35,300 bases of DNA from the NCBI GenBank assembly GCA_900299295.1, contig OMJH01000148.1, forward strand, positions 1 through 35,300. The letters run 5' to 3'. This stretch comes from Bacteroidota bacterium (lineage in GTDB: Bacteria; Bacteroidota; Bacteroidia; B-17B0; Aurantibacillaceae). The position numbers and the translations under genes were made by a program. The notes beneath the pieces were generated by a model. It did no database searches. It saw nothing but the letters and a program-made list of their open reading frames with translations, and had not been told where the DNA came from. Each line of letters starts with the position of its first letter. The stretch's first letter is position 1. Below are positions 2,836 to 35,300 of this stretch, piece by piece.

Positions 2836-3720
2836 CTAATGCCGTTTCCATCCTACTGGAACTAAGTCCGGAGAATAAACTGCCGCATCTGCAAACCATT
2901 GCTTCGGAGCAATAACAATTTTATTTTCATTGGAATTTAACCATGCACCCCACCAGCTAAAGCTGCTGTTGGCAATGATATTGTGTTTACAGGCCGACAT
3001 CAACGCAAGATCAAAAACAGCATCTTTGCCCGAATTTTGTTCAACAAAATGCAATGGATAAGAAAATTTTAAATTGGATTTTGCCCATTCCACATCATCA
3101 GAAAAAATAAAAAATTCAGGGTTAACTATTGATTCTTTAATCACGGCGACGGCTTTTTCGTAATAAGACATCGATAAAACACCATGAAACTTTGCTGCCT
3201 GAGGATTGCTGACATAATCCCCACGACGAATATGCAGCGACACACTGTTCACTGATGCAATTTTTGAAATCCATTCCGAATTTGCAGTACTGAATTCCTT
3301 TTTAGGTTTAAACTCATTCAATAATTGAAAACGGATTTTTTTAAAATAGCGTTCGCTTTGCCAATAACCCTCCAGATAAACATTAGCGGGTAGTTTAAAA
3401 AAATTAGTCTGAAAGGCCATACCTGATTCCGCGAAATAAATCTTGCGGAATAAAAAAGAAAACTTACGCTGAAGCCAACGCAGATATGCATTATTGTTCC
3501 TACTCGAATAATCTGAGATTTCATTTTCACTTGCCCAGGACAAATTGACATTTAGTAAATCAAGCTCGACATTGCGCGGTGTAACACCTTCCGGCACAGC
3601 TGATCCAAGAGCGCCTTTATCAAACTTCAACTCCGCCCCGTGCAAGGTGGCCAGTTGTTTGCCGGCAGCGTATTGAAACATCTGATTACCTAAGCCTCCT
3701 GCCAATTTAACGATGATCAT
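2836..3720 (-). CDS. Alpha-1,2-fucosyltransferase (GT11 family)
   Basis: A GT11 protein of 294 residues if it starts at the ATG at 3720, just before the conserved first strand MIIVKLAGGLGNQMFQYAAG. An open frame continues 23 codons upstream but has no family similarity and would run deep into the previous gene. The GDP-fucose-binding motif HIRRGD is at residues 163-168 and a late NSSFSWWGAWL segment is typical of the family. The ATG overlaps the stop codon of the upstream GT4 gene as ATGA (3717-3720), a sign of coupled translation. It should add fucose in alpha-1,2 linkage to the growing glycan in the cytosol. No GDP-fucose synthesis genes are seen in the window. Confidence 0.92.
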   Translation of the reverse strand: MIIVKLAGGLGNQMFQYAAGKQLATLHGAELKFDKGALGSAVPEGVTPRNVELDLLNVNLSWASENEISDYSSRNNNAYLRWLQRKFSFLFRKIYFAESGMAFQTNFFKLPANVYLEGYWQSERYFKKIRFQLLNEFKPKKEFSTANSEWISKIASVNSVSLHIRRGDYVSNPQAAKFHGVLSMSYYEKAVAVIKESIVNPEFFIFSDDVEWAKSNLKFSYPLHFVEQNSGKDAVFDLALMSACKHNIIANSSFSWWGAWLNSNENKIVIAPKQWFADAAVYSPDLVPVGWKRH

Positions 3721-4886
3721 TTCAGTAAATCGGAATAAAGTTGAATATACTGATCGGCAATTGCTTCCCAGGTAAATTTTTCTTGCCATGCCTTTCGTCC
3801 GGAAATTGAAAATTGCTTCCGTCGCGATTCATCCATTAATATTAAACGAAGCTGTTCGCTTGCCTTTTCAAATTTCGGAAAAACAAAACCATTTTTATCT
3901 TTTACAGTTGTCATAATTTCTCCACTCCCGGTCCATTTTGCAATCTCAACAGCATTTCCTACATCTGTGCAAAGAAAAGGCAAGCCGGCAGCCGCAGCTT
4001 CATATAAAACAATCGGGGAACATTCAACCTGACTTGGAAAAAAGAAAAGATCTGATTGAAAATATGCTGCAACGGTTGTTTTGCGATCAGTCTCTGTTAG
4101 TATAATTTGATTTGATCCAAAAAAAGAGAAAAACCATTTAAACAACAAGCCTGGATATTTAAAAATGCTGCGTTTTTTAAAATAGGATGTATTATTACCG
4201 ATCATAAACAGCGTACAATTTTTTAATTTGGAATTCAGAAACAACTGAATAGCCTCCTTATGTCCTTTTCGTCCAGTATAGGAACCCACATGCAATAAAA
4301 TTTTGTGATGTGATGGAATTCCGAATATCTTCCGAATATCTATTGAAGGAGCATGCTCAAACTCGACCTTGGATGCACCATTTGGGATTAAGATAATTTT
4401 TGAAACACCGTTATCACGTGCAAAATTAATATCCCGATATTCATTACTCAGGTAAACGTTCATATCATAATCATGAATCCAATGCTGCATTTGTTTAAAA
4501 TAATCACGGAATTCGTCACGAAAAAGCCCTGAATAACCTGTAGGCACTGAAACTTTTTTAAGCTTAATCTGTTTGAGATGCGGCAGAGCAAAGTTTGTGG
4601 CCCATTGCTGAGCAGCGAAAAAAGTAATTACATCTCCATTCAATTGCAACAAAAACTCAATGTAGCGATGATCCTCGGGCGATACTGGATTGAATGGGTT
4701 TCCTTCAATATTAAATTGGATTATTTTTACACCATTCAATTCCGTGAAATTTCTTTCCGTATGGAATCGTGTTAACACAGTCACCTCATGCCCCAGAAAT
4801 ACCATTCGTTCAGATAATTGCCGTACCACCTCCTGCATACCGCCAACAGAAGGGAAATACGATTCAACTGCGTGGTAAATCTTCAT
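3717..4886 (-). CDS. Glycosyltransferase family 4 (GT-B)
   Basis: A 389-residue GT-B enzyme. The N-terminal acceptor domain begins KIYHAVESYFPSVGGMQEVVRQL, the usual glycine-rich GG loop after the first strand. The C-terminal donor domain opens with KILLHVGSYTGRKGHKEAI and carries the EX7E-type element ECSPIVLYEAAAAGLP, where the two Glu contact the nucleotide sugar. It is probably a retaining transferase that adds a hexose or deoxyhexose to a lipid-linked glycan at the inner membrane. It begins 7 bases after the GT2 upstream (4894) and ends in the ATGA overlap with the fucosyltransferase. Sugar specificity cannot be given. Confidence 0.92.
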   Translation of the reverse strand: MKIYHAVESYFPSVGGMQEVVRQLSERMVFLGHEVTVLTRFHTERNFTELNGVKIIQFNIEGNPFNPVSPEDHRYIEFLLQLNGDVITFFAAQQWATNFALPHLKQIKLKKVSVPTGYSGLFRDEFRDYFKQMQHWIHDYDMNVYLSNEYRDINFARDNGVSKIILIPNGASKVEFEHAPSIDIRKIFGIPSHHKILLHVGSYTGRKGHKEAIQLFLNSKLKNCTLFMIGNNTSYFKKRSIFKYPGLLFKWFFSFFGSNQIILTETDRKTTVAAYFQSDLFFFPSQVECSPIVLYEAAAAGLPFLCTDVGNAVEIAKWTGSGEIMTTVKDKNGFVFPKFEKASEQLRLILMDESRRKQFSISGRKAWQEKFTWEAIADQYIQLYSDLLK

Positions 4887-4893
4887 GCGAACA

Positions 4894-5910
4894 TCAAAAT
4901 TGATGAGACGAATTTAATTGATTAAATCGATGAAAAATCCAACGACGTTTTAATTTCAATACAAATAAACTCAATGCGGATAGTTTAGTTTGACTAAAAT
5001 CATTACGAATTTTTTGCATTTCCATTTTTAATAGAAAACGCTGAAAGACCAATTTCTTTTCATTTTCATTTTCCGAAGTGAAAATTAACTCAATCAAATT
5101 TTTTCCGAGGCTTTTCAGTAATTGCTTTTCTTTTTTAGTTTTGTATCCTGAATGATAAATTTCTGCAAGATGATTAATTTCATTTTCGGAAAAAGAAAAA
5201 TAATACGACAAATTAAGTTTGGTTTGATTCCGTACCTGATCAGAATATTTTTTTTCAGATTTAGACATTCCTGTTCCGACTTCTCGGTAATCAAGTAAAA
5301 CGTTAGGCAAGTTGGCGATTTTATTCGTACGGGAAATCCGCGACCATAAATTATGATCTTCAAAAAAATTATGATTCGCATCATAACCTCCAACGTTAAA
5401 CAACATCTGCTTATTAAATAAAACAGAGGAGTGAACAAACGGATTATCAAAAACCAAATCAAAGCAAAGTTGTGGGGATTTGGTAGCGTGTAAATGCTTT
5501 CGCCCTGTATCAATACCTTGTTCATTAATAATACGGGCCTGAGCACCCACCAAAGCGTAATCAGGATGCTTTTCGAGGAAGTTTACCTCTAGTTTTAACC
5601 GATCAGGATAGGAAATATCATCATTGTCTTGGCGTGCAATATATTTTCCTTTGGCAAGCGAAATTCCTTTATTAAGCGTTTTAGCTAAACCCATATTTGA
5701 ATGCTCAACATAACGAATACGGGAATCAGCAAAAGTATTTATTACCGATGAAGACTCATCTGTAGAACCATCATTCAAAATAATGAGTTCAAAATCAGTA
5801 AAGGTTTGATTCAATACACTTCTAATAGACTCAGCTAAATATTTTTCAGCGTTGTAAACAGGAAGGATGACGCTTACAAGCGGATTAGTTGTTATGCGCG
5901 TTTCTGCCAC
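4894..5910 (-). CDS. Glycosyltransferase family 2
   Basis: A 338-residue GT-A enzyme. Motifs in order are SVILPVYNAEKYL, LNDGSTDESSS, and the metal site ARQDNDD near residue 97, followed by a Lys-rich C-terminal helical region that may sit on the membrane. The start is GTG at 5910 because no ATG precedes the first strand. It overlaps the last 19 bases of the FkbM methyltransferase gene. The first 120 residues are strikingly like the partial GT2 at 1-952, including the shared string NDGSTDESSS, so this is likely a within-cluster duplication with a changed acceptor. The exact sugar is unknown. Confidence 0.92.
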   Translation of the reverse strand: MAETRITTNPLVSVILPVYNAEKYLAESIRSVLNQTFTDFELIILNDGSTDESSSVINTFADSRIRYVEHSNMGLAKTLNKGISLAKGKYIARQDNDDISYPDRLKLEVNFLEKHPDYALVGAQARIINEQGIDTGRKHLHATKSPQLCFDLVFDNPFVHSSVLFNKQMLFNVGGYDANHNFFEDHNLWSRISRTNKIANLPNVLLDYREVGTGMSKSEKKYSDQVRNQTKLNLSYYFSFSENEINHLAEIYHSGYKTKKEKQLLKSLGKNLIELIFTSENENEKKLVFQRFLLKMEMQKIRNDFSQTKLSALSLFVLKLKRRWIFHRFNQLNSSHQF

Positions 5911-6602
5911 AAATTCTCGAGAACAAAAAGTGTATTAATGTTTGTATCTGCATAAACCATATACCCGTTTTCTTTTAGAAATTGAATCATTCCATCATTT
6001 TTGACACCCCTACCCTTTGTAGAAAATGATATCGTCTCCACACAAATTACCTTTGGAGAGTAATTTTTATAGTTAATAGACTTTAAAATCTGCTCATCCA
6101 ATCCTTCCACATCCAGTGAAAGCAAATCTGGAAAGATTCCTTTAGCATATTTCTCAATTATACCATTTAGCGACTGAGTTTTTACTTTCTTGATTTCCTT
6201 TACAAAATAACCCGGATGCTCTTTATTAATTCTTTCCGCCTCTTCTTTTACAAGTGTATTTAAAGTAGGCTCATTAAAAACATAAAAATCCAATTCGCCC
6301 TCATGTTCCCCAATGGCTAAATTTAAATTTGTATCCTTTGGTCTTTCAATAGTAAATTTTTGAAATAATTCCGGATCAGGTTCGATGTTTATTCCCCTTC
6401 CCCCTTTTTCATAAAATAAAAAGGTGTTATTCAAATAATACGGGTGATGAGCGCCAATGTCTATCCAACTTGGCTTTTCAATTTTTAGTTCATGAAGAAT
6501 ATGATGTATGATCAAATCTTCTCCACACTGGCTCCAGGATTTCTTTGCAAAATCCTCAGCGTTTTTTTTGATATTATTTTTCTTAAAAAAATTATTAATC
6601 AT
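5892..6602 (-). CDS. FkbM-family SAM-dependent methyltransferase
   Basis: A 236-residue protein with the FkbM layout: SQCGEDLIIHHIL near the N-terminus, the SAM-binding strand WIDIGAHHPYYLNNT, the acidic end of strand two in GINIEPDPELF, and the late LLSLDVEGLDEQIL motif. Family members O-methylate sugars or polyketides, and in glycan clusters they usually methylate a sugar hydroxyl. The ATG at 6602 overlaps the stop of the upstream GT2 as ATGA, and its 3' end overlaps the next GT2 by 19 bases, so it belongs to the same transcription unit. The methylated position is unknown. Confidence 0.9.
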   Translation of the reverse strand: MINNFFKKNNIKKNAEDFAKKSWSQCGEDLIIHHILHELKIEKPSWIDIGAHHPYYLNNTFLFYEKGGRGINIEPDPELFQKFTIERPKDTNLNLAIGEHEGELDFYVFNEPTLNTLVKEEAERINKEHPGYFVKEIKKVKTQSLNGIIEKYAKGIFPDLLSLDVEGLDEQILKSINYKNYSPKVICVETISFSTKGRGVKNDGMIQFLKENGYMVYADTNINTLFVLENLWQKRA

Positions 6603-7495
6603 TTACTGAGTTTTGACTGAATACTTTTAATAAAATTTAAAACTGAACGGCTTTTAATTATTTTTTTGAATTCCGTTTCAGAAATGAACACATCTTTAAG
6701 GAAAGGCTGCAAATCAAAAATGGATTTAATTTGATATTTTGAAAGTAGGTGAATCAACCGATCCAATACGCTTTGATCTACCAAATCAAGTTCCTTTAAT
6801 TTGTTGTACAGTAAAAAATATTCATACAACTCGGTCTCAGGATTATTGCTGTCTTTTGTCACATTGTGATTTGCATGATTAACGCTAGTGATTAAAGTTT
6901 CATCAATAAAAGTAAATTTCCCCGAAGAATATTTCAGCATGTGAATATAAAAATCTACATCAACCAACCATTTCATTCGCTCATCAAATAGCACAGCAGC
7001 GTTTCTATTGAATAATGTTGAACTTGGTGGACCCAGCAAATTATGCTTAAACAAAACTGCAGGATTAGTTTTGAGATCCTCTAAAAAATCTACTGGAGGG
7101 ATATGATTAAATTTAATATCATCTTTTACATTAAATGAAACAGCGGATGAAAACAAAAAAGAATTGAATTTGGATCCTGCTTGCATGAATTTGTAAAGAG
7201 CATCCTTACCATTCAACCAATCATCGTGATGCAAAATCTTTATCCAGTCGCTTGAGGCAATCTTAATGCAATGATTCCAATTTTTGGCAGGACCAAGTGA
7301 GGGAAAATTCCTAAAATACTTGATTTTAATCTGTGAATCTAGGCTTGAAACCAGTTTTTTTACTTCGTCATTAGTGGAATCATCCGAAACAATAATTTCC
7401 ATTTCGGGATAGTCCTGTTCAATTACAGAAGCAAGCGTCCGCTTCAGGTATTCTGTTTGATTGAAACACGGTATACAAACGGAAACGCTTTTCAT
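6599..7495 (-). CDS. Glycosyltransferase family 2
   Basis: A 298-residue GT-A transferase. It opens SVSVCIPCFNQTEYLKRTL, has VSDDSTNDEV for nucleotide binding and ILHHDDW at the metal-binding position, and VDVDFYIHML near the acceptor site. It is clearly diverged from the other two GT2 enzymes in the cluster, so it probably has a different donor or acceptor. Its ATG follows the TAA of the TylF-like gene directly (TAAATG), and its stop overlaps the next ATG. It is cytosolic, with no signal peptide. Confidence 0.9.
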   Translation of the reverse strand: MKSVSVCIPCFNQTEYLKRTLASVIEQDYPEMEIIVSDDSTNDEVKKLVSSLDSQIKIKYFRNFPSLGPAKNWNHCIKIASSDWIKILHHDDWLNGKDALYKFMQAGSKFNSFLFSSAVSFNVKDDIKFNHIPPVDFLEDLKTNPAVLFKHNLLGPPSSTLFNRNAAVLFDERMKWLVDVDFYIHMLKYSSGKFTFIDETLITSVNHANHNVTKDSNNPETELYEYFLLYNKLKELDLVDQSVLDRLIHLLSKYQIKSIFDLQPFLKDVFISETEFKKIIKSRSVLNFIKSIQSKLSK

Positions 7496-8275
7496 TTACG
7501 GTTTTATTATAATTCCCTGGCAAGTGGGTAAACTTAATACCATTACACCTTTGGAAGCTGCAAATTTATCATGTGCCAATTTTTGATTGAGGCATCCCGG
7601 ATATCCATAATCATCCAGTACAATGATGCCACCGCTAACAAGCTTCGGCCAAAAATATTCCAAGGCTGCCACTTCAGGAATCTCACTGTTCATGTCAATT
7701 GACAAAAAAGAAATCTTTTCGCAATCGGCCTGTGGCAAGGTATCCGGAATCGGACCTTTGATAATTTTTGTTTTAAAATTCTTGAAGGTCTCTTTTACTT
7801 GTGCAAATAAATCAACTTCAGCATAGCCGAGTTTTTTATTTCGCTCCATCTCATAGGAAGAGCTGTATCGGTTGTCCATTCCTGCAAACGTATCCATTAA
7901 GTAATACGTTTTGTTCAGTTTTTGAAAATCGACAAAATGACAAATTGCCCGTGGGGAAAATCCTGAATAAACCCCGCAATCCACAAAGTCACCCTCGAGT
8001 TTGGCGGCATGCGACGCAGCCCAGCACACCACATGTATCCTCCACTGAATATCATAATTATCCAACAGTCTTCCGCCCAGTTGTTTTACCAAAGCGTATG
8101 CTTCCGAAAATTTCTTTTCTCGAATAAAATCAGAATTATGATAGGTGTAAAGCAAATCGTTTGCATAGGAAAGCTCATCCTTTGGAAGTACAAGTACACG
8201 ATCTCTATCGATGTTTCGATTTTTGATCATGTTCACCAGTTTTTTCGGTAAAACTTTTTTCAGAAAATTCTTCAT
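7496..8275 (-). CDS. TylF/MycF-like (macrocin O-methyltransferase-type) methyltransferase
   Basis: The likely start is ATG at 8275 (259 residues, MKNFLKKVLPKKL), one base after the TAA of the ABC gene; a longer open frame runs upstream into that gene and is not needed. The TylF pattern is present: DFVDCGVYSGFSPRAI as the SAM-binding loop, YLMDTFAGMD for the strand-two acid, SFLSIDMNSEIPEVAALEYFWPKL, and GGIIVLDDYGYPG, which in TylF/MycF enzymes supplies metal-binding acids. Known relatives O-methylate deoxysugars. Together with the FkbM gene this gives the cluster two methyltransferases, so the glycan is probably methylated, perhaps at its end. Confidence 0.88.
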   Translation of the reverse strand: MKNFLKKVLPKKLVNMIKNRNIDRDRVLVLPKDELSYANDLLYTYHNSDFIREKKFSEAYALVKQLGGRLLDNYDIQWRIHVVCWAASHAAKLEGDFVDCGVYSGFSPRAICHFVDFQKLNKTYYLMDTFAGMDNRYSSSYEMERNKKLGYAEVDLFAQVKETFKNFKTKIIKGPIPDTLPQADCEKISFLSIDMNSEIPEVAALEYFWPKLVSGGIIVLDDYGYPGCLNQKLAHDKFAASKGVMVLSLPTCQGIIIKP

Positions 8276-8276
8276 T

Positions 8277-9548
8277 TTAATCTCGCTTAGTTTCCCAATG
8301 ACACAGTGGACGAACCATACCTGGAAATCCGAGGGTATACACTCCTCGTGCTGAATCACCACGCATATAATCCACCACCGTAAAATTTACCGCATCCAGT
8401 TCCTGAAAATACACTTCAAAGGGATCAACCGATAAAATTGCTACGCCCACACTTACACCGCCTTCAGAAAGTAAATTCGGAGGTACAACCATCGTTGTTC
8501 GATATATTCCTTTTTGCCTTCTCTCAGAACGAATAGGTGAAACTGTATCGTGCGTGTTAAAAATATTCACCCCTTCCTCATTAAAAAAATTGAAGCTGTG
8601 AGTAAACACAAATCCGTCCTGCAACACTTCATATTCCATAGTAATATAAATCTCAGCGGTCACATCATACGATTCTTTACTTGCTCCCTGTTTATCCTGA
8701 ATTAACACTTCCTTCAATCGAACAACATGATTTCCGGGAGGAGACGGATGATGATGGTAACTCCTGCGGGAGGATCCGCCACCGTCAGATTTCATATACA
8801 TCCGAACCACTTCATCTGCCTTTCCAATCGCTTTTACTTTACCCTGCTCCAATAAAATGCCTTTGTTGCACAAGCGTAAAACCGTCTCCATGTAATGACT
8901 AACAAACAAAATTGTTCTTCCCTGCCCAGCCACATCCTCCATTTTTCCGAGACATTTTTTCTGGAAGGTACTATCACCCACAGCAAGCACTTCATCCACA
9001 ATCAGAATTTCCGGTTCAAGATGCGCCGCAACTGCAAATGCCAAACGCACATACATTCCGGAAGAATAACGCTTTACCGGAGTATCCAAAAATTTTTCCA
9101 CCTCAGCAAAACCAACAATTTCATCGAATTTTTTTCGGATTTCAGATTTACTCATTCCAAGTAGAGATCCATTCAGAAAAATATTTTCACGACCGCTGAG
9201 TTCAGCATGAAACCCGGTTCCTACCTCAAGCAAACTTCCTACACGTCCGTCAATGGTAATTTTTCCGCGCGTCGGACTTACTATACGGCTTAAAATCTTT
9301 AACAAGGTTGATTTCCCCGCTCCGTTTCTACCAATAATTCCAACCCGGTCTCCTGCATTGACTGAAAAATTTACACCTTGCAAGGCCCAGAATTCCGAGG
9401 TTTGTTTACGCTTCGGCAATCGGCCTTTCAACACGTTTTTGAAGCCACCAGAAATAGTATCCCGCAAGGTAGCGTACGAAGCTCCTTTTGTACCCGTTTG
9501 AATAGAATACAATTTGGAAAGATTTTCAACTTGGATAACAGGATTCAT
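8277..9548 (-). CDS. ABC transporter ATP-binding protein, Wzt/polysaccharide-export type, with C-terminal domain
   Basis: A 423-residue ATPase from the ATG at 9548 (a TTG three codons earlier is less likely). The nucleotide-binding domain holds Walker A (GRNGAGKST, about residues 73-81), the KRYSSGM signature (about 159-165) and Walker B (ILIVDEVLAVGD, about 181-192). The short YSSGM signature and long pre-Walker segment are typical of polysaccharide and teichoic-acid exporters. Residues about 255-423 form an extra beta-rich domain like Wzt-C, which in E. coli O8/O9a Wzt binds the modified end of the glycan. It should act at the inner membrane with a Wzm-type permease, but no permease is in the window. 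First gene of the visible glycan run. Confidence 0.92.
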   Translation of the reverse strand: MNPVIQVENLSKLYSIQTGTKGASYATLRDTISGGFKNVLKGRLPKRKQTSEFWALQGVNFSVNAGDRVGIIGRNGAGKSTLLKILSRIVSPTRGKITIDGRVGSLLEVGTGFHAELSGRENIFLNGSLLGMSKSEIRKKFDEIVGFAEVEKFLDTPVKRYSSGMYVRLAFAVAAHLEPEILIVDEVLAVGDSTFQKKCLGKMEDVAGQGRTILFVSHYMETVLRLCNKGILLEQGKVKAIGKADEVVRMYMKSDGGGSSRRSYHHHPSPPGNHVVRLKEVLIQDKQGASKESYDVTAEIYITMEYEVLQDGFVFTHSFNFFNEEGVNIFNTHDTVSPIRSERRQKGIYRTTMVVPPNLLSEGGVSVGVAILSVDPFEVYFQELDAVNFTVVDYMRGDSARGVYTLGFPGMVRPLCHWETKRD

Positions 9549-9630
9549 GAAGCACAAAAATACGGAATTCCCTGCTGGGAGGTATAATCTGTTATCGATT
9601 TTAAACTAACACTGCTTGAGGAAGGAGTTC

Positions 9631-10149
9631 CTACGGATTTATTTCAATCGGAGTTCCAATAGCTACAGCTTCATAAAGTTCATCAACCTCATTGCTTGTA
9701 ACTGCCATACAGCCTTTGGTCCAGTCGAACCAACGATGAAATTTACCAATGTAACTCATGCCATTTTTAAGGCCATGAATCTTTATTTCTCCTCCCGGAG
9801 ATTTGCCGATTTTCTGTGACCGTGCACGATCATTTTCGTTTGGATATGAAACTCCCAAATTTTTATGATAGCCACTGTTGGGATTTTTTGTATTTATGAA
9901 ATAATTCCCTTCCGGTGTCCGGTTATCCCCTTCAAATTGTTTATGGCCTTTTGGATCACCTCCAAGTGAAATTACGTAAGTCTTCAATTCCTTGCCTTTG
10001 AAATAGGCAATTAATTTTCTTTCAGACTTAAAAACTACCAACCTGTCAATTTTCACTCCTAATGGAAGTTTAAACTCCGGATAAAAGTAGTAAACAACTG
10101 GAAAAAGAAGAAATCCGATTGATAAACGAAAAAGCCATTTTCTTACCAT
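9631..10149 (-). CDS. L,D-transpeptidase (YkuD fold, YafK-like)
   Basis: About 172 residues from ATG at 10149; a GTG at 10161, directly after the previous stop, is an alternative. One N-terminal hydrophobic segment (residues about 5-25) should export or anchor it. The catalytic domain shows GNYFINTKNP, IKIHGL with the conserved His, and DWTKGCMAVT with the nucleophilic Cys. The S/T-x-GC surroundings read TKGC rather than the commoner SHGC, as in YafK-type enzymes. It should cut or form L,D-peptide links in peptidoglycan or link proteins to it. It lies just downstream of the 143-residue unknown gene and 82 bases before the ABC gene. Confidence 0.85.
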   Translation of the reverse strand: MVRKWLFRLSIGFLLFPVVYYFYPEFKLPLGVKIDRLVVFKSERKLIAYFKGKELKTYVISLGGDPKGHKQFEGDNRTPEGNYFINTKNPNSGYHKNLGVSYPNENDRARSQKIGKSPGGEIKIHGLKNGMSYIGKFHRWFDWTKGCMAVTSNEVDELYEAVAIGTPIEINP

Positions 10150-26395: not shown

Positions 26396-26403
26396 TAGCT
26401 TTG
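26396..26403 (+). promoter_or_regulatory. Candidate -7 box of the tRNA-Arg gene
   Basis: TAGCTTTG matches TAnnTTTG and ends 21 bases before the 5' end of the tRNA, which would give a short 5' leader. A TTG -33 box is not present at 17-23 bases; only a TTA is found, at 25 bases. Confidence 0.4.
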
Positions 26404-26424: not shown

Positions 26425-26498
26425 GGTCCCGTAGCTCAACCGGATAGAGCAACAGCCTTCTAAGCTGTAGGTTCCGCGTTCGAGTCGCGGCGGGATCA
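26425..26498 (+). tRNA. tRNA-Arg (anticodon TCT)
   Basis: A 74-base cloverleaf. The acceptor arm GGTCCCG pairs with CGGGATC with one G-T pair, followed by discriminator A. The D arm is GCTC/GAGC. The anticodon arm ACAGC/GCTGT has loop CTTCTAA, giving anticodon TCT (reads AGA/AGG). The T arm CCGCG/CGCGG has loop TTCGAGT. The 3' CCA is not encoded, as usual in Bacteroidota. AGA is a frequent Arg codon in AT-rich genomes. Confidence 0.97.
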
Positions 26499-26592
26499 CA
26501 ATTCGTCGATATTTCTTACCCTGTTCATCTAAATCTTTATTTACATCTATCAACATGTTTTCCAATTTAGGATTACAGATTGAAAAGTTTTC

Positions 26593-26600
26593 TATATTTG
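26593..26600 (+). promoter_or_regulatory. Candidate -7 box of the giant PKD-protein gene
   Basis: TATATTTG is a perfect TAnnTTTG match 22 bases before the ATG at 26623. A purine-rich AAAGGA (26605-26610) lies between and could aid ribosome binding. A TTG occurs at 26580-26582 but the 10-base gap is too short for a -33 box. Confidence 0.4.
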
Positions 26601-26622: not shown

Positions 26623-29600
26623 ATGGAATTTTTTCTCAGGAATTCAAGATATTCGATTTTGACCATTGTTTGGCTAATGACTTCCATTGTTTATGGCAAT
26701 GTCAGTCCTTCTTGCCCTATTAGTATCACAACTACCTCCACAAGTATTTGTTTTGGCTCCTCAATCAAACTTCACGCAAACGGAGGCTCCAATTACTTAT
26801 GGAGCACAGGAGCAACCACGGATTCAATAACTGTAAGTCCGACCACCACCACAACTTACAGTGTAACCGGAATATGCAACGGGAATCCTGATACAGCTTT
26901 TATCACTATTACTGTTAATCAATTACCCAATACTAACTTTACATCTTCACCTAGCTCACAATGCGCCTTAACTCCTATTCAGTTCACAAATACCAGTTCA
27001 GGCACCGGCTTAACCTATTCATGGAATTTTGGCGACCCTGCCTCCGGTTTCCAAAATAACACCTCCACTTTAATTAACCCTAGCCACACCTATTCCTCTG
27101 CAATAGGAACAGGCAATCAAACATTTAACGTGGTACTCATTGCTACCAGCAGTGATGGCTGTTCTAAAACCACAATAAAACAAGTAACTGTTAAGCAAAT
27201 ACCAAGCGCTGTGTTGTCTGACTTTACCAGTTCAATACCCTTTACGAATTGTGGAAGCACAACATTTACCCTCGAAGTTACAAACACATCATCTACAGCC
27301 TCAACAAATACTAGCTATACAATTTCTTGGGGAGATGGATCACCAAATTTCACTTCAACTAATTGGCCTTTAAACAGCACAGAAAATCACACATATAATA
27401 ATCTTGGCTTTTATCCATTATTACTAACTGTTAACGGACCAAATGGTTGTTTTGATACTACAACCTACTCGGTATACAACGGAAGTAATCCTGCGGTTGG
27501 CTTAGGCAATCCCGGCGGAACAGTAAATATTTGTACCCCCGCGGCCCTTACTTTCCCAATTACCGGAACTTCCGGAAATGCCCCAGGAACCACGTATATA
27601 ATTACCAGCAACACCGGGCAGGCACCTATCAATCTTAATCATCCACCACCTTCAAGCTATTCATACACTTTCACTACAACCTCCTGTGGTGTTTTCGGCG
27701 CGAACACTCCCAATGCCTATTTTATCCGAATTAAAGCAATCAATCCTTGCGGTTTTACTGAAAGTACTGTTGAACCCATCACAACTTCGATTAAACCGGA
27801 GGCTAAAATGACTGTTTCACCAGACACAATAATTTGCAAAGGATCCTCATTTACTTTTTCAAATACTTCAGACTACGGTATTGCTGTGAACAGTGCAGGA
27901 TTTTGCGATACCTTGAATAAATTTAATTGGAAAATTAGTCCATCTACCGGCTGGGGACCCCCAAGCGGCAGTAACAATGTAATCAGCCCGGGAAACCAAT
28001 TGGGCAGCAACACACCGAACAACAATCCTGCAACGTGGGGATCAAAAAACCTACATGTTACATTTACGCAAGCAGGCCAATACACTGTAACTTTGGTTGT
28101 AGGAAACTCCTGTGGAAATGACACAGTTCAAAAAGTTGTTTGTGTTGAAGATCCGCCTTCGCCCGGATTCAATATTTCCGCGCAAAGCGGATGCGCTCCG
28201 TTTATTCCTACCATTACAAATACATCAAGTTTTCAATTCCTTTGTAAACCAGTTACAATTCAATGGACGGTTACAAAATTAAGTTCTACATGCGCAATTG
28301 ATTCTGTTGTAAATTTCAGGTTCATCAACAACACAACTTCAACTTCAGCAACTCCTTCAATCCGGTTTAATAATCAGGGTTTTTATATTGTAAAACTCTC
28401 TCTAACCAATAAATGCGGGACCTTCAATTTCTCCGACACTATAGAAGTAAAACGTAAACCTACTATCTCCATTACTAAAATACCCGGAAGTTGCGGACCG
28501 GTAACTGTAACCCCCACCGCAAACGTTACGAATTGCGGAGTTAGTGCACTAACCTATCAATGGAATTTCAGTGGAGGAACACCCGCTAGCTCTACCTCAG
28601 CTTCGCCGGGTAGCGTTTCATTTTCTTCTTTAGGAACGCATACCGTTTCATTAACATCAGGAAACGAATGCGGTACAACAACGATTGATTCCACCTTTTT
28701 AATTTCACAGCCACCTACAGTTTCGGCCGGAAACAGTACTTCGGTTTGTCTAGGTACGACGGTCAATCTTCAAGGCAGTATTATTTCCGGAACCGGGCCA
28801 TTCCAGTTTTCATGGACAAGTAATCCAACAGGATTTACCTCCAACCTGCAAAACACCACCGCTACTCCAACTGCCACTACAGTTTATTCACTCACCGTAT
28901 CAGATGCCGCTTCATGCTCATCCACAGTAAACGTAACCTACACAGTAAATCCGCTTCCGAATTTAGGAGTTAGCTCCACCTCAATTTGTATCGGACAATC
29001 CGCGACTTTAACTGCGAGTGGTGCAAATCAATATTTATGGAACACGGGATCAACCTCCCCATCGATTGTGGTTACCCCAACCGTCAGCACAAATTTTTCA
29101 ATCACAGGAACAAATACACTTACAACATGTTCTAAAACTGACACAATTTTAGTTCAAGTAAATTCATTACCTGTGGTAAACGCTGGCCCTGGTCTTACTT
29201 TTTGCAACCAGCCTATTCCCACTCAAATTACAGGAAACACTCCCACGGGCGGAATATGGTCCGGACAATTTGTTAGTTCAGGTGGGATTTTCACGCCTGG
29301 TGCAATTGGAAATTTCCTTCTCACCTACACCTTTACCGACAACACGACCGGATGCGCTAATTCTGATACCCTGACCGCAAGCGTAATAAATGCGCAACAA
29401 GCAAACGCCGGTACCGGATTCACGCTTTGCCAAAATGCGAATCCTGTAACCTTAGTAGGAATAAGCCCTGCAGGCGGTAGCTGGTCAGGTCCCGGAGTTG
29501 CAAATAACATTTTTACACCTTCTGTAGCAGGTGCCGGCATCCAAGTATTAAATTATTCTTTTGGAAACGGCTCCTGTTTGAGCATCGACACCATACATGT

Positions 29601-32600
29601 AAATGTTTTAGCTACTCCCAACTTAACCGTTAATTCTCCAACCATCTGTGAAGGACAAAGCACAACCCTAACCGCCAATGGAGCGGATACTTATGTTTGG
29701 AGCACCGGAAGTACCTCTCAACAAATAACAGTAAATCCGAACTCCACCAGCCAATTTACCATAACCGGAACTAATACATCGAATGGTTGCACTCTTTCGC
29801 TCACTTCCACAGTAACCGTTAACCCATTACCGGTTGTAAACGTTGGCCCGCCTCAAGTTTTCTGCAACCAACCCATCGCAGATACGCTTGGCGGTTATTC
29901 TCCGGTTGGAGGGATATGGACAGGTACCGGTGTAACATCCAATGGTGTTTTCACTCCATTTGCCAATGGAAATTTTCAATTGGTTTATACATATACTGAT
30001 TCCGGTTCAGGTTGTTTCGATACAGATACGCTTGATATAACGGTTGTGACACCGCAAACTATTAACGCAGGAACAGGATTCAGTCTTTGTCTTAATAGTC
30101 CAACGGTAGCGCTTTCTGGATTTTCACCCATCGGGGGCAATTGGTCAGGACCCGGTATTACAGGAAATAATTTCACCGCTTCAGTTGCAGGAGTTGGCCC
30201 GCATGTCTTAACCTATGCATTTGGTACGGGTACCTGCTTCGGAACCGATACACTTCAGGTTTTTGTTATTGGCCTGCCAAATTTATCGGTTGGAAGTGCG
30301 GTAATTTGCGGCGGTCAATCTACCACATTAACCGCAAGCGGCGCTGATACTTATTCATGGAGTACCGGCGACACTACTGCTTCCATTTCAGTCAGTCCGG
30401 CGTTTACTGCAGGTTTTACAGTAACAGGAACGAGCACAATAACAGGTTGCTCAACAAGTGCAACGGGTTCTGTCAGCGTAAACCAATTGCCTGTTATAGC
30501 TTACAATCATGTGGCCATTGGTTGTTCGGGGAGCTCAATTGCCTTTACTAATCAGACCACCGGTGCTTCAAGTTATCTATGGAATTTTGGCGATAATAAT
30601 ACATCAAACTCCTCGGCACCAAACCACACTTATTCCAATGTTGGAACTTACACTGTCAGCTTGATAGCCATAAGCCCGGCCGGTTGTTCGGATACTTTGT
30701 CTGATACAATTTTAATTGTTGATCCACCCGTTCCCAATTTTACTGCCTCTCCGGACTCAGGATGTGCTCCGCTGGATGTTTATTTTACCAACAATTCCAC
30801 CGGAACAAATGTTTCTTACTTCTGGGATTTCGGAAACGGTGATACTACCTCGATTGCTTCACCGGACACAATTACATTTCAGCAAGGCATGAACGATACT
30901 ACCTACATTGTCACACTTTCCGCAACTAATTTGTGTGGCATAACCACATTTTCCGATACAATATTTGTTCGACCGCAACCGGTTATCAACTTCGGAACCA
31001 ATGTCAATTCCGGATGTTCTCCGTTGCCGATTTTCTTCATTAATTTATCAGCTGGAAATCCAACACAATATATTTGGGATTACGGTGATGGTTCACCAAC
31101 CTCCAATGCCGTGCAGTCGGGACCGCATACCTATTTCACTGGAACAAGTGATACTACTTACTACGTTTCTCTAATAGGAATAAATTCCTGCGGAAGTGAT
31201 ACATTGACAAAAAGCATACTTGTACATCCCAATACGGTAACTTCATTTTTTAATACTTCGGTAACCTCCGGGTGCGGTCCCTTATCCGTCACTTTCACCA
31301 ACTTCTCCACCGGCGGATCCTTTTTCTCATGGGATTTCGGCGACGGGAATGTTTCAACTGCACAATCCATCACTCACGTTTATCAAAACGCGGGTACATA
31401 TACTTGTTCACTCGCTGTAAATAACGGATGCAGTTATGACACCAGTACGATTACCATTACCGTATTTCCAGGGCCACAACTATCGTTCAGCTTGACCACG
31501 CAGCCGGCATGTGCAGAGAATCCGGTTCAATTTACAAACACCTCCAGCAGCAGTGTAAATTACGAATGGGATTTTGGCGATGGAGATACTTCGGTTTTAA
31601 CCAACCCGATTCACACCTATCTAACCGGTGGAACATTTTCGGTTTCATTAATTGGTACCTCTTCAACTAATGGTTGCCTTGATACGTTGATACAAATAAT
31701 TTCTATAAACGATCTCCCCGTTCCACTATTTTCAACAGACACTTTAATAGGATGCACTCCTTTTGTTGTGCCCTTTAACAATACAACTCAAAATGGAAAT
31801 TTTTACAGCTGGGATTTTGGTGACGGAAACACGTCTGCTGTCATTTCACCTGTGCACGTATTTACCCAGGTTGGTAATTCGCATGTAGTTTTGATTGTAG
31901 AAAATCTTGCTGGGTGTATTGATTCACTTTCCACAAACATCACCACTTTACCCGTTCCCACTTCTGCATTCAGTCTTGTAAATATTTCCAGTTGCTTTGT
32001 TCCGATTACTGTAACGCCGCAAAATACCAGTACGGGCGCAATTTCATACGAGTGGGATTTTGGAAATGGAGACACCTCCTCACTGAACAATCCGTCTGTC
32101 ACTTACACAACTTTTGGGATCGATACAATTCAGTTGGTAACAATGAACAGCTTCGGATGTACAGATACTGCAGTAGCGGTTTTTTATCCGACTCAACCAC
32201 CGGAAATTAATTTTTCAGCTGACACAACATCAGGTTGCAAACCATTACAAGTAAATTTCATTAACCAAACTCAATTTGCCACAAACTATTCTTGGTCCTT
32301 CGGAAACGGTGATAGTTCTGTTTTTTCCAATCCACTCTACACCTTTCAAAATGAAGGTTTATATGATATAACGCTAATCGCTTCGAACCAATTTTGCAGC
32401 GACACACTTACAAAAAATGATTTCATTGAAGTTTTTCCACGGCCAATAACTGACTTTACATTTAATCAGGTTATGGTGAACGGAGTCAGCAACGGTACAG
32501 TTGAATTTATTAATAACACCCAAAACGCCGTCTCTTATGTTTGGGATTTTGATGATGGCACAAGTAGTCAGGATTTAAATCCATCTCATCAATTTCCTGC

Positions 32601-33015
32601 CGCTTCGAATTATTTTGTTATTCTGACAGCCTTCAATGAGTATCAGTGCAGTGACACTGCGGTGCGGTTAGTAATACCGGATTATTTTGAAAGTCTATTT
32701 ATTCCCAATGCTTTCATGCCCGGGAATCCACATGGTGGAGAATCCCGTTTATTTCTACCAAAAGGTAAATCCATTAAGGAGTATAAACTTGAAATTTATA
32801 ACACATATGGAATCAAGATTTTTGAAACCACCAAACTAGATGAGAGCGGCTGCCCATCTGAAGGCTGGGATGGAACCCATAACGGCACACTTTGTCAGCA
32901 AGATGTTTATGTTTGGAAGATTTCTGCAATATTTTTGAGTGGTAAAATATGGGAAGGAGTCGAAACGAAGAACGGAAAACTAAAAAATGCCGGAACAGTC
33001 ACCTTAATCAAGTAA
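26623..33015 (+). CDS. Giant PKD/Ig-like repeat surface protein with gliding-motility (T9SS type B) C-terminal domain
   Basis: A 2130-residue secreted protein. A signal peptide covers about residues 1-26 (ILTIVWLMTSIVYG). The order is: an Ig-like module (about 30-92), two PKD-like modules (to about 290), about 500 residues of Cys-bearing PKD/Ig-like modules, two colinear 220-residue composite units starting at 787 and 1007, a third partial unit at 1227, then nine PKD modules. The nine carry W-x-F-G-D/N-G turns at residues 1320, 1401, 1485, 1570, 1649, 1730, 1811, 1891 and 1974. The end (about 2027-2130) has IPNAFMPGNPHGG, LEIYNTYGIKIFE, GWDGTHNG and DVYVWKI, the gliding-motility-associated tail. 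T9SS should export it as a fibrous adhesin. The PorP/SprF-like gene starts one base after its stop. Confidence 0.94.
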   Translation: MEFFLRNSRYSILTIVWLMTSIVYGNVSPSCPISITTTSTSICFGSSIKLHANGGSNYLWSTGATTDSITVSPTTTTTYSVTGICNGNPDTAFITITVNQLPNTNFTSSPSSQCALTPIQFTNTSSGTGLTYSWNFGDPASGFQNNTSTLINPSHTYSSAIGTGNQTFNVVLIATSSDGCSKTTIKQVTVKQIPSAVLSDFTSSIPFTNCGSTTFTLEVTNTSSTASTNTSYTISWGDGSPNFTSTNWPLNSTENHTYNNLGFYPLLLTVNGPNGCFDTTTYSVYNGSNPAVGLGNPGGTVNICTPAALTFPITGTSGNAPGTTYIITSNTGQAPINLNHPPPSSYSYTFTTTSCGVFGANTPNAYFIRIKAINPCGFTESTVEPITTSIKPEAKMTVSPDTIICKGSSFTFSNTSDYGIAVNSAGFCDTLNKFNWKISPSTGWGPPSGSNNVISPGNQLGSNTPNNNPATWGSKNLHVTFTQAGQYTVTLVVGNSCGNDTVQKVVCVEDPPSPGFNISAQSGCAPFIPTITNTSSFQFLCKPVTIQWTVTKLSSTCAIDSVVNFRFINNTTSTSATPSIRFNNQGFYIVKLSLTNKCGTFNFSDTIEVKRKPTISITKIPGSCGPVTVTPTANVTNCGVSALTYQWNFSGGTPASSTSASPGSVSFSSLGTHTVSLTSGNECGTTTIDSTFLISQPPTVSAGNSTSVCLGTTVNLQGSIISGTGPFQFSWTSNPTGFTSNLQNTTATPTATTVYSLTVSDAASCSSTVNVTYTVNPLPNLGVSSTSICIGQSATLTASGANQYLWNTGSTSPSIVVTPTVSTNFSITGTNTLTTCSKTDTILVQVNSLPVVNAGPGLTFCNQPIPTQITGNTPTGGIWSGQFVSSGGIFTPGAIGNFLLTYTFTDNTTGCANSDTLTASVINAQQANAGTGFTLCQNANPVTLVGISPAGGSWSGPGVANNIFTPSVAGAGIQVLNYSFGNGSCLSIDTIHVNVLATPNLTVNSPTICEGQSTTLTANGADTYVWSTGSTSQQITVNPNSTSQFTITGTNTSNGCTLSLTSTVTVNPLPVVNVGPPQVFCNQPIADTLGGYSPVGGIWTGTGVTSNGVFTPFANGNFQLVYTYTDSGSGCFDTDTLDITVVTPQTINAGTGFSLCLNSPTVALSGFSPIGGNWSGPGITGNNFTASVAGVGPHVLTYAFGTGTCFGTDTLQVFVIGLPNLSVGSAVICGGQSTTLTASGADTYSWSTGDTTASISVSPAFTAGFTVTGTSTITGCSTSATGSVSVNQLPVIAYNHVAIGCSGSSIAFTNQTTGASSYLWNFGDNNTSNSSAPNHTYSNVGTYTVSLIAISPAGCSDTLSDTILIVDPPVPNFTASPDSGCAPLDVYFTNNSTGTNVSYFWDFGNGDTTSIASPDTITFQQGMNDTTYIVTLSATNLCGITTFSDTIFVRPQPVINFGTNVNSGCSPLPIFFINLSAGNPTQYIWDYGDGSPTSNAVQSGPHTYFTGTSDTTYYVSLIGINSCGSDTLTKSILVHPNTVTSFFNTSVTSGCGPLSVTFTNFSTGGSFFSWDFGDGNVSTAQSITHVYQNAGTYTCSLAVNNGCSYDTSTITITVFPGPQLSFSLTTQPACAENPVQFTNTSSSSVNYEWDFGDGDTSVLTNPIHTYLTGGTFSVSLIGTSSTNGCLDTLIQIISINDLPVPLFSTDTLIGCTPFVVPFNNTTQNGNFYSWDFGDGNTSAVISPVHVFTQVGNSHVVLIVENLAGCIDSLSTNITTLPVPTSAFSLVNISSCFVPITVTPQNTSTGAISYEWDFGNGDTSSLNNPSVTYTTFGIDTIQLVTMNSFGCTDTAVAVFYPTQPPEINFSADTTSGCKPLQVNFINQTQFATNYSWSFGNGDSSVFSNPLYTFQNEGLYDITLIASNQFCSDTLTKNDFIEVFPRPITDFTFNQVMVNGVSNGTVEFINNTQNAVSYVWDFDDGTSSQDLNPSHQFPAASNYFVILTAFNEYQCSDTAVRLVIPDYFESLFIPNAFMPGNPHGGESRLFLPKGKSIKEYKLEIYNTYGIKIFETTKLDESGCPSEGWDGTHNGTLCQQDVYVWKISAIFLSGKIWEGVETKNGKLKNAGTVTLIK
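28981..29640 (+). repeat. Composite 660-base repeat, unit 1 (220 residues, coding)
   Basis: Encodes residues 787-1006 of the giant protein. It contains three modules: an Ig-like one starting SICIGQSATLTASG (787-850), and two GG-x-W-S-G modules (851-923, 924-998). Unit 2 starts exactly 660 bases later and aligns with no visible gap. Confidence 0.85.
29641..30300 (+). repeat. Composite 660-base repeat, unit 2 (220 residues, coding)
   Basis: Encodes residues 1007-1226. It begins TICEGQSTTLTANG and has the same three-module order as unit 1, including FCNQPI, GGIWTG and AGTGFSLC. The DNA is clearly diverged from unit 1, so the duplication is old or was kept by selection on protein length. Confidence 0.85.
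30301..30525 (+). repeat. Composite repeat, partial unit 3 (Ig-like module only)
   Basis: Begins VICGGQSTTLTASG exactly 660 bases after unit 2, and keeps the Ig-like module to about residue 1301 (VNQLP). It then passes into the PKD array, so the two GG-x-W-S-G modules are absent. The end coordinate is approximate. Confidence 0.75.
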
Positions 33016-33016
33016 A

Positions 33017-34126
33017 ATGAAGAGAGTCGCATTATTATTTTTGATTTTTGCTCTTTCCAGATACGGATTTGGTCAGGATCCTGTCTCTTCACAATTTTTC
33101 TTCAATGAACTTTACATGAACCCTGCATTTTGCGGTCTAAAACGTGATGCACGGATTGGATTAGACTACAGAAGGCAATGGTTGGGTGTTCCCGGTAAAC
33201 TTGAAACCTATGATTGCTGGGGAGATATCTATAGCAACATTTTTAATGGCGGTTTAGGATTTATGGCATCTCAGGACGTTTCAGGAGATGGATTATTAAA
33301 AACAACCTCAGCCGGGATTATACAGTCGTTCGAGTATACAATTCCGAAAGTGATTCGTATCCGTGCCGGGTTTAATGTTAACGGAGTTCAGAAACGCATC
33401 GATTGGAGCAGATTGATTTTCAGCGACCAATTAGATCCTAGCCTTGGTAACATTTACGAATCCAACGTTGACCGGCTTTACAACAAAGTAAGAACCTACG
33501 CAGACTTTGGAGCTGGAACCATGTTAGATTTCAAAATGATCAAGACACATCATTTAAACATAATGAATACGGCAGGATATTCTTGTGCCCACCTTACTCA
33601 ACCGAATGAGGCACTGAGCGGAGCCGAAAACAAAAACCTTCCGAGAAGGCATACGTTTCATCTGACAACAACGCTTGAATTTGTTGGAAATGGAACAAAC
33701 GAACACAAATGGTATATTTCACCTAACATTGTTTATGACCGGCAAGGAAATGGATCCGGGAAAGGAGTTTTTCCTTTCGCTAAACAAGCACAATTTTCAG
33801 CGTTTAACATTGGTTCTTACGTAATGTATTCCCCTACAATTGTTGGATTTTTTTACCGCAAAAAAAGTGCATTAAATTTTGTTGACAACGATTGTTTCAT
33901 CCTTTTCCTTGGACTGAGACAGGAGATCGCCGAAAAAACAATTTTAAAGTTCGGATACAGCTACGACTTCACAATCAGTGGAATTTCAGCTAACACTTTA
34001 GGTTCCCACGAAATTAGTTTATCCATTGAATTTAAAGGTAAAACTCTCAAACTAAAGGCAAAACACCATATTTTCAGAAATAATATTGATTGTGAAGATT
34101 TTGGACAGCGTTCCTTTATTTTTTAG
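33017..34126 (+). CDS. PorP/SprF-family type IX secretion outer-membrane protein
   Basis: A 369-residue protein with a signal peptide (ALLFLIFALSRYGFGQ). The mature N-terminus carries the family hallmark QDPVSSQFFFNELYMNPAFCG, followed by RIGLDYRRQWLGVPG, then beta-barrel-like strands to the end (LGSHEISLSIEF). In Flavobacterium johnsoniae SprF is needed to secrete SprB, a giant protein with a type B tail. SprF-like proteins are commonly paired with such cargo. Here the gene starts one base after the 2130-residue cargo with a type B tail, so this is very likely its dedicated partner in the outer membrane. The last 15 residues (NNIDCEDFGQRSFIF) are unusual for a barrel end. Confidence 0.92.
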   Translation: MKRVALLFLIFALSRYGFGQDPVSSQFFFNELYMNPAFCGLKRDARIGLDYRRQWLGVPGKLETYDCWGDIYSNIFNGGLGFMASQDVSGDGLLKTTSAGIIQSFEYTIPKVIRIRAGFNVNGVQKRIDWSRLIFSDQLDPSLGNIYESNVDRLYNKVRTYADFGAGTMLDFKMIKTHHLNIMNTAGYSCAHLTQPNEALSGAENKNLPRRHTFHLTTTLEFVGNGTNEHKWYISPNIVYDRQGNGSGKGVFPFAKQAQFSAFNIGSYVMYSPTIVGFFYRKKSALNFVDNDCFILFLGLRQEIAEKTILKFGYSYDFTISGISANTLGSHEISLSIEFKGKTLKLKAKHHIFRNNIDCEDFGQRSFIF

Positions 34127-34502: not shown

Positions 34503-35300
34503 ATGATTACTATTTTTCGTACAAGATTTTTTTTTAACGCAATACTTATTTTTGCGAGTTTCTTCTCAGTAATTAAATCTCAGACGCTCGTCACCTTTAA
34601 TTTTACCGGATCTGTTCAAAGTTTTACGGTTCCCCCATGTGTAACCACCTTAACGGTTAACGCCAGAGGTGCGCAAGGTGGAGGAACGAATGGCGGCTTG
34701 GGAGCAATTGTTACGGCAACGATGGCTGTAACACCGGGCCAAATTATCCAAATTCGGGTTGGCGGACAAGGAAATTGCCCCGCAGGTGGATATAACGGAG
34801 GAGGAAACGGGGCTAATGGAAGTGCAGCTTCTTGCGGAGGCGGCGGAGCTTCTGATGTCCGTATTGCACCATACGGTTTAGCCAACAGGGTTATTGTGGC
34901 AGGAGGCGGTGGCGGAAAAGGCGGAGGTTCTCAAAATGTAGGCGGAGGCGGAGGCGGTTGTTTAACTGGTGTTGCCGGTGTTGCATCTTTTGGTGGTGGT
35001 GGTACCGGTGGAAGTCAAGCAGCCGGCGGAGTCGGAGGAATCGCTTGGGGGGGTGGATCAGCCGGACAAGCAGGAAGTTCAGGTCAAGGTGGCAATGGCG
35101 CAGCTGATCCATGTTATGGAACTTGCCCGGGTGGTGGCGGTGGCGGTGGATATTTCGGCGGTGGTGGCGGCGGAAGTGATTGTTTTGCCTCTCCGCCTAA
35201 CGGCGGCGGGGGGGGGGGGGGGGGGGCAAAGTTTTTTTCCAATTGGGGGGGCCTCCCCCCAAGCCCCCAAACTTGGAAAGGGAAAACGGGAAAGCCCCAC
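34503..35300 (+). CDS. Glycine-rich secreted protein (partial, right edge; last ~95 bases unreliable)
   Basis: The frame from ATG at 34503 stays open to the window end (266 codons). A signal peptide covers about residues 1-28 (FNAILIFASFFSVIKSQ). The mature part starts TLVTFNFTGSVQSFTVPPCV, then becomes glycine-rich (GARGAQGGGTNGGLGA, VAGGGGGKGGG and similar), a pattern found in some Bacteroidota surface proteins whose later parts often hold PKD or T9SS domains. From about 35208 a run of 19 G and further homopolymers look like sequencing error, so the frame there cannot be trusted. The real C-terminus is outside the window. Confidence 0.8.
   Translation, partial: MITIFRTRFFFNAILIFASFFSVIKSQTLVTFNFTGSVQSFTVPPCVTTLTVNARGAQGGGTNGGLGAIVTATMAVTPGQIIQIRVGGQGNCPAGGYNGGGNGANGSAASCGGGGASDVRIAPYGLANRVIVAGGGGGKGGGSQNVGGGGGGCLTGVAGVASFGGGGTGGSQAAGGVGGIAWGGGSAGQAGSSGQGGNGAADPCYGTCPGGGGGGGYFGGGGGGSDCFASPPNGGGGGGGGAKFFSNWGGLPPSPQTWKGKTGKPH

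What the first reader, a model, noticed from the sequence alone, without database searches (positions are those of the whole stretch)
26623..34126. A 2130-residue type B T9SS cargo paired with its own PorP/SprF-like protein
The cargo has a signal peptide, dozens of Ig/PKD-like modules and a gliding-motility-type C-terminus. The PorP/SprF gene follows after one base, and a perfect TAnnTTTG box precedes the cargo. Type B cargo such as SprB of F. johnsoniae needs a SprF partner (established), so this is probably a dedicated two-gene adhesin system. The module order, with 220-residue composite units inside the PKD protein, is not one I recognise.
Basis: partly seen in the sequence, partly recalled or inferred. 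Interest (0 to 1): 0.6.

Follow-up and report, generated by a model that had tools for sequence, protein, structure and literature searches.

The report
Giant surface protein with dedicated anchor
A Bacteroidota bacterium encodes a 2,130-residue surface protein next to the outer-membrane carrier that should export and hold it; such pairs are routine, but this one belongs to an undescribed subtype whose export signal lacks the usual motif and whose carrier has a conserved tail cysteine that may hook the protein to the cell's moving gliding track.

Summary
In detail: a 2,130-aa secreted PKD/Ig-repeat protein (26623-33015) followed after one base by a PorP/SprF protein (33017-34126). The partner is a clear PorP/SprF (TIGR03519 182.7 bits, cut-off 90.55). 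The cargo C-terminus is the surprise: it is below both curated cut-offs (TIGR04131 21 bits of 35; CHU_C 22 of 27). It is not a random tail but belongs to a conserved subtype without the canonical P-N-G-D-G-x-N-D motif (0 of 32 subtype CTDs, against 65 of 72 canonical ones). The subtype co-occurs with one PorP clade: in 197 genomes, all 15 with a high-scoring clade PorP also have the CTD subtype, adjacent or unlinked. That clade (SH-aLRT 100) has a C-tail cysteine in 64 of 65 members (C359 here). In F. johnsoniae, tail cysteines of SprF bind GldK and couple the adhesin to the gliding track; this genome's GldK keeps the reactive Arg-Gly-Cys, and GldJ is present. Best reading: a SprB/SprF-like export/anchor pair, probably track-tethered. 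Pairing itself is ordinary (13 of 16 PorPs in this genome sit next to a CTD gene). New variant of a known kind; tethering is inferred, not shown.

The parts
26593..26600 (+). TATATTTG, match to the Bacteroidota -7 promoter box TAnnTTTG, 30 nt before the cargo start codon; no -33 TTG at the usual spacing
   Evidence: consensus match only
26623..33015 (+). cargo gene: 2130-aa secreted repeat protein (57 Cys, Thr/Ser/Asn-rich)
   Evidence: collinear orthologues in L127 and L126 at 34-43% identity
26623..26697 (+). probable Sec signal peptide (about residues 1-25)
   Evidence: sequence inspection only
28960..29619 (+). first 220-residue composite unit of Ig-like modules (residues about 780-999)
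   Evidence: lag-220 and lag-440 self-matches; boundaries approximate
29620..30279 (+). second 220-residue composite unit (residues about 1000-1219); a partial third follows
   Evidence: boundaries approximate
30481..32655 (+). run of PKD domains (residues about 1287-2011), about 80 residues each
   Evidence: Pfam PKD_4 364.7 bits in 14 stretches over the whole protein
32686..33012 (+). C-terminal secretion domain of the non-canonical type B subtype: no P-N-G-D-G-x-N-D motif, 'RLFLPKG' instead, extra residues before the final G-x-VTLI
   Evidence: AlphaFold2 with the preceding PKD domain: mean pLDDT 93.8
33017..34126 (+). PorP/SprF-family outer-membrane shuttle, predicted 14-stranded barrel
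   Evidence: TIGR03519 182.7 bits, PF11751 131.9 bits; model; PDB fold hits FadL and the T9SS barrels 8gl6_F and 6h3i_F
34037..34123 (+). C-terminal tail of the shuttle after the last strand (residues 341-369), low confidence/disordered, expected in the periplasm
   Evidence: pLDDT under 50 at 349-362 and 364-369
34091..34093 (+). codon of Cys359, invariant in a 44-sequence alignment of related shuttles; candidate for a disulfide with GldK

Best explanation
The two genes encode a type IX secretion cargo and its own carrier. The cargo passes the inner membrane by a signal peptide and crosses the outer membrane through SprA. The PorP/SprF barrel takes it from the translocon by its C-terminal domain and holds it on the surface. 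The carrier's flexible periplasmic tail carries Cys359, which most likely forms a disulfide with the reactive cysteine of GldK, so that the adhesin is coupled to the mobile track rather than to peptidoglycan. Shown: the gene pair, family membership of the carrier, the CTD subtype, co-occurrence of subtype and carrier clade, the conserved tail cysteine, presence of SprA, GldM-like, GldJ and GldK with its RGC motif. Inferred: secretion, pairing specificity, disulfide tethering and movement.
For: Carrier: TIGR03519 at twice its cut-off; 14-strand model and T9SS-barrel fold hits. Machinery: SprA 2447.9 bits, GldM-like, GldJ at its cut-off near PorU, GldK whose C434 aligns with the PorG-reactive C356 of P. 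gingivalis PorK in an R-G-C motif. Pairing: collinear orthologous pairs in G013 and G019; in 197 genomes all 15 with a clade PorP of 340 bits or more also have the subtype CTD, which occurs in 27 (hypergeometric 1.5e-15, seven families, kinship not removed); of the 12 other CTD-bearing genomes seven have a complete adjacent PorP and one a partial one. Tree: the clade of 65 holds all 30 subtype pairs included and no canonical pair. Tail Cys within the last 20 residues: 31 of 32 subtype pairs against 12 of 71 canonical pairs; all 8 complete linked shuttles found by the CTD search and not in the first set have it. Peptidoglycan anchors (fused SPOR/OmpA or nearby OmpA gene): 0 of 32 subtype pairs, 32 of 71 canonical. 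Literature: SprF tail cysteines bind GldK C343 and are needed for gliding, and a single tail Cys is essential in P. gingivalis PorG (PMC12635249); cognate CTD/shuttle pairs are required for secretion (PMC12618676); SprF binds SprB (PMC9143113).
Against: SprF has Cys-x-Cys, this carrier a single Cys in a different tail sequence; with one Cys the bond-exchange mechanism proposed for SprF cannot operate as published. Tail cysteines also occur in 13 of 71 canonical pairs (last 25 residues), and over all PorPs tail Cys and peptidoglycan anchors are not significantly exclusive (p 0.14). Gliding of this uncultured organism is unknown. The gene after the pair is cut by the contig end, so a PorE-like gene further on cannot be excluded in this genome. 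In the same-genus genome G001 (78% complete) the shuttle orthologue stands without a detected CTD of the subtype. Four CTD-bearing genomes (G076, G116, G144, G217) have no carrier of the clade found.
Confidence: 0.6

Rival explanations
1. Same exporter/carrier pair, but static: the carrier holds the adhesin still on the surface, and Cys359 serves stability or another bond.
For: Static type B pairs exist: Fjoh_3952 with Fjoh_3951 and a PorE homologue (PMC12618676), PG1035-PorP-PorE (PMC9143113). Seven PorPs with a tail Cys in the census also have an OmpA-type gene near. Only one Cys is present.
Against: No OmpA/PorE-type gene or fused SPOR/OmpA domain in any of 32 subtype pairs. The tail cysteine is nearly invariant in a tail that otherwise varies.
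Confidence: 0.27
2. The carrier is not dedicated: it serves several cargos, and adjacency reflects co-expression only.
For: In G039 and G045 one solo carrier of this clade co-exists with three and two unlinked cargos of the subtype. In F. johnsoniae Fjoh_1677 serves three orphan cargos (PMC12618676).
Against: In this genome only one CTD of the subtype was found (146.9 bits; the next is 69.9 bits) and it is the adjacent one.
Confidence: 0.08
3. The cargo is not a T9SS substrate and the adjacency is accidental; the C-terminus is only a degenerate domain.
For: The C-terminus fails the curated cut-offs of TIGR04131 and CHU_C.
Against: 29 related C-termini align at 37-59% identity and the fold is predicted with high confidence. 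Adjacency recurs with either gene order in many families, and co-occurrence holds when unlinked.
Confidence: 0.03

Closest known systems
SprB/SprF of Flavobacterium johnsoniae
   Same: Giant repetitive adhesin followed by its PorP/SprF carrier; no PorE gene next to the pair; carrier with conserved cysteine in the periplasmic C-tail (PMC12635249, PMC9143113).
   Different: Carrier here has one tail Cys, not Cys-x-Cys. The cargo is built of PKD/Ig modules with 220-residue composite units; no SprB repeat was found by Pfam. Whether SprB/SprF lie in the clade found here was not tested.
[quoted passage not shown]
   Same: One shuttle, several unlinked cargos with similar CTDs (PMC12618676), as in G039 and G045 here.
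   Different: Sequence relation to this clade not tested.
Fjoh_3952/3951/3950 and PG1035-PorP-PorE (static type B complexes)
   Same: Type B cargo plus PorP carrier.
   Different: These have a PorE-type peptidoglycan anchor; none was found in the subtype pairs.
TIGR04131 / PF13585 CHU_C type B sorting domain
   Same: Same position and detectable homology (E 2e-4).
   Different: Below the curated cut-offs; lacks P-N-G-D-G-x-N-D; extra residues before the final G-x-VTLI.
GhpA grappling-hook protein of Aureispira (PDB 9flp)
   Same: Giant repeat protein with related PKD/Ig modules and a weakly similar C-terminus (27 bits).
   Different: 5,898 aa; similarity is at domain level only.

Membership tests
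PorP/SprF family (TIGR03519, PF11751) | profile score over the curated cut-off | tested here: met
   182.7 bits (cut-off 90.55) and 131.9 bits (22.3)
PorP/SprF family (TIGR03519, PF11751) | 14-stranded FadL/PorV-like outer-membrane barrel | tested here: met
   14 strands in the model; Foldseek hits to FadL and T9SS barrels 8gl6_F and 6h3i_F
PorP/SprF family (TIGR03519, PF11751) | required for secretion of its cargo | not testable with these tools
   needs genetics
T9SS type B sorting domain TIGR04131 | profile score over 35 bits | tested here: not met
   20.7 bits, 21.4 bits
CHU_C PF13585 | profile score over 27 bits | tested here: not met
   22.1 bits
Type B T9SS cargo (functional sense) | linked to or co-occurring with a PorP/SprF carrier | tested here: met
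   adjacent here; co-occurrence
Type B T9SS cargo (functional sense) | canonical P-N-G-D-G-x-N-D motif seen in this genome's other CTDs | tested here: not met
SprF-like track-tethered carrier | conserved cysteine in the periplasmic C-tail | tested here: met
   C359
SprF-like track-tethered carrier | Cys-x-Cys pair as in SprF | tested here: not met
   single Cys in the tail; no C-x-C tail in 201 PorPs
SprF-like track-tethered carrier | GldK with the reactive Arg-Gly-Cys in the same genome | tested here: met
   C434 of GldK (L245) aligns with PorK C356; motif stated in PMC12635249
SprF-like track-tethered carrier | disulfide adduct with GldK and movement of the cargo | not testable with these tools
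   needs non-reducing blots and tracking
PorE-anchored static type B complex | PorE-like (OmpA/PD40) gene in the operon | tested here: inconclusive
   none in this window, but the contig ends one gene downstream; none within three genes in 32 related pairs

The most novel reading that the evidence does not exclude
The CTD subtype is an address label: cargos that lack P-N-G-D-G-x-N-D are routed only to PorP carriers with a tail cysteine and so to the moving GldK track, while canonical CTDs go to carriers anchored otherwise, including PorP-SPOR and PorP-OmpA fusions. Sequence alone would then predict which surface proteins of a Bacteroidota cell move, including in families not known to glide.
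Probability: 0.3. Interest if true: 0.72.

Novelty: new variant of a known kind. Interest (0 to 1): 0.5.

Why it matters
If right, it extends the SprF-GldK disulfide linkage, published in 2025 for one species, to a broad PorP clade in Bacteroidia, and ties it to a CTD subtype that current family models miss. That gives a sequence rule for carrier choice and for mobile versus static surface proteins, testable with one point mutation. It also means that annotation with TIGR04131/CHU_C cut-offs overlooks some giant adhesins.

Tried and rejected
Exclusivity of tail cysteine and peptidoglycan anchor over all PorPs: tested and not supported (p 0.14; among paired PorPs p 1.0); a contrast holds only between the subtype pairs and the canonical pairs. 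C-x-C tails as in SprF: none among 201 PorPs. A sequence relative of the carrier in the PDB: none. TIGR00864 polycystin hit: only PKD repeats, far below its cut-off. Looking for SprB/SprF itself: F. johnsoniae could not be named in the held genomes; a try through one other, unnamed family gave CPTF/CPDF-tailed PorPs with intermediate CTDs, not SprF. DNA-level repeats in the cargo are weak (copies about 60-72% alike), so no recent repeat expansion.

Full report
What is there. The window is a whole contig (G000:C148, 35,300 bases) of a draft Bacteroidota genome of 2.8 Mb. Two same-strand ORFs lie at the stated place: a 2,130-aa secreted repeat protein (26623-33015) and, one base after its stop, a 369-aa protein (33017-34126). 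The second is a PorP/SprF protein without doubt (TIGR03519 182.7 bits against a cut-off of 90.55; PF11751 131.9), predicted as a 14-stranded barrel whose best structural matches include FadL and the barrels of the T9SS structures 8gl6 and 6h3i. The cargo carries many PKD modules and a real 220-residue composite period. The TAnnTTTG box is present and such boxes are modestly enriched before genes in this window, but no -33 element accompanies it.

The C-terminus. It fails the curated cut-off of TIGR04131 (20.7-21.4 bits of 35) and of CHU_C (22.1 of 27), and is the weakest of 36 hits in its own genome. The reason is visible: nearly all other CTDs read in this genome carry P-N-G/N-D-x-x-N-D; this one does not, and it has extra residues before the terminal G-x-VTLI. 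It is nevertheless a conserved domain: 29 relatives align at 37-59% identity, and the fold is predicted with mean pLDDT 93.8.

How ordinary is the pairing? Of 16 PorPs in this genome 13, this one included, sit directly next to a CTD gene, as in F. johnsoniae, where 9 of 12 type B cargos are adjacent to a shuttle gene (PMC12618676). Adjacency is therefore not the finding.

What is special. Loci fetched with the carrier sequence alone show that relatives of this carrier, when next to a CTD, are next to the same non-canonical CTD subtype: 32 subtype pairs, no canonical pair. None of these 32 CTDs has the canonical motif, against 65 of 72 canonical CTDs in an unselected census of all PorPs of 15 genomes. 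In a tree of 201 PorPs a clade of 65 (SH-aLRT 100) holds this carrier and all 30 subtype pairs included in the tree, and no canonical pair. Gene order varies: cargo first in this window and in Bacteroidales loci, carrier first in Saprospiraceae, divergent in G107. Elsewhere the partners are unlinked: G039 and G045 have one solo carrier of the clade and three and two cargos on other contigs.

Co-occurrence. In 197 Bacteroidia genomes the CTD subtype (about 100 bits or more; gap between 105 and 90 bits) is in 27, and a clade carrier of at least 340 bits in 15; all 15 have the CTD (hypergeometric 1.5e-15; seven families; shared ancestry not removed). Of the other 12, seven have a complete adjacent PorP and one a partial adjacent PorP; four (G076, G116, G144, G217) have no partner near the CTD. 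The carrier threshold was set after looking at score gaps, and the profiles include sequences from some of these genomes; both favour the result. One contrary case, G001 of the same genus, has the carrier but no detected CTD of the subtype and is 78% complete.

The tail cysteine. Cys359 lies in the disordered C-tail and is invariant in the alignments; 64 of 65 clade members have a tail cysteine (exception L164). Within the last 20 residues: 31 of 32 subtype pairs against 12 of 71 canonical pairs. Eight complete linked carriers found through the CTD, and not in the first set, all have it. In F. johnsoniae the SprF tail cysteines form a disulfide with GldK C343 that is needed for gliding but not for SprB export, and a single tail cysteine is essential in P. 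gingivalis PorG (PMC12635249). This genome's GldK has the reactive Arg-Gly-Cys (C434, aligned with PorK C356), and GldJ scores at its cut-off (458.1 of 458.2 bits). Neighbours of the clade in the tree include PorPs encoded between PorU and GldJ, also with a tail cysteine.

Test that failed. I expected tail cysteines and peptidoglycan anchors to exclude each other. Over all PorPs they do not (7 of 40 with Cys have an anchor, 29 of 91 without; p 0.14). Between groups a contrast holds: 0 of 32 subtype pairs against 32 of 71 canonical pairs have a fused SPOR or OmpA domain or a nearby OmpA gene (p 4e-7). The neighbourhoods compared differ in length, and some contigs end near the pair.

Verdict. 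Most likely this is a SprB/SprF-like export and anchor pair of an undescribed CTD/carrier subtype, probably coupled to the GldK track through C359. Pairing is supported by comparative evidence; secretion, disulfide and movement are inference. By the rule on membership it is not filed under TIGR04131 or CHU_C; it works like a type B signal. The carrier is filed under PorP/SprF.

Noticed in passing
L241 (G000:C53:1186-12082), 3210-9953: A solo PorP with tail ...CPSF lies between PorU and GldJ; the same PorP type with the same tail recurs beside PorU-sized genes in many Bacteroidia genomes of the census.
   Followed up: partly
L243 4982-6334 (own genome, C194) and L278, L300, L324, L327, L331, L335, L338, L332, L345: PorP proteins with a fused C-terminal peptidoglycan-binding domain: SPOR in eight (two just below the Pfam cut-off), OmpA in two; all paired with canonical CTD cargos.
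   Followed up: partly
window 34503-35300: Start of a secreted glycine-rich protein (ALK_LTK_GRD 46.6 bits), cut by the contig end; the last 80 bases or so (poly-G, poly-C) look like low-quality assembly.
   Followed up: no
window 26425-26499: tRNA-Arg(TCT) between dprA and the cargo gene, itself preceded by a TAnnTTTG box at 26396.
   Followed up: no
G118:C4:402991, G039:C2:23172, G110:C13:41490: Open frames of 7,612, 6,252 and 5,625 codons that end in the CTD subtype; in G118 and G039 the clade carrier is on another contig.
   Followed up: no
L109 and L116: The solo carriers with tail NCYNFNGP/NCYNWHGP lie beside rimO in two families (rimO and bshC identified by profile in L109; the same order by sequence in L116), a conserved neighbourhood without a cargo gene.
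   Followed up: no
L400-L429 (family of G050): PorPs with CPTF/CPDF tails, several paired with CTDs of intermediate type (GG-rich insertion before NDVFLP), neither canonical nor of the subtype.
   Followed up: no
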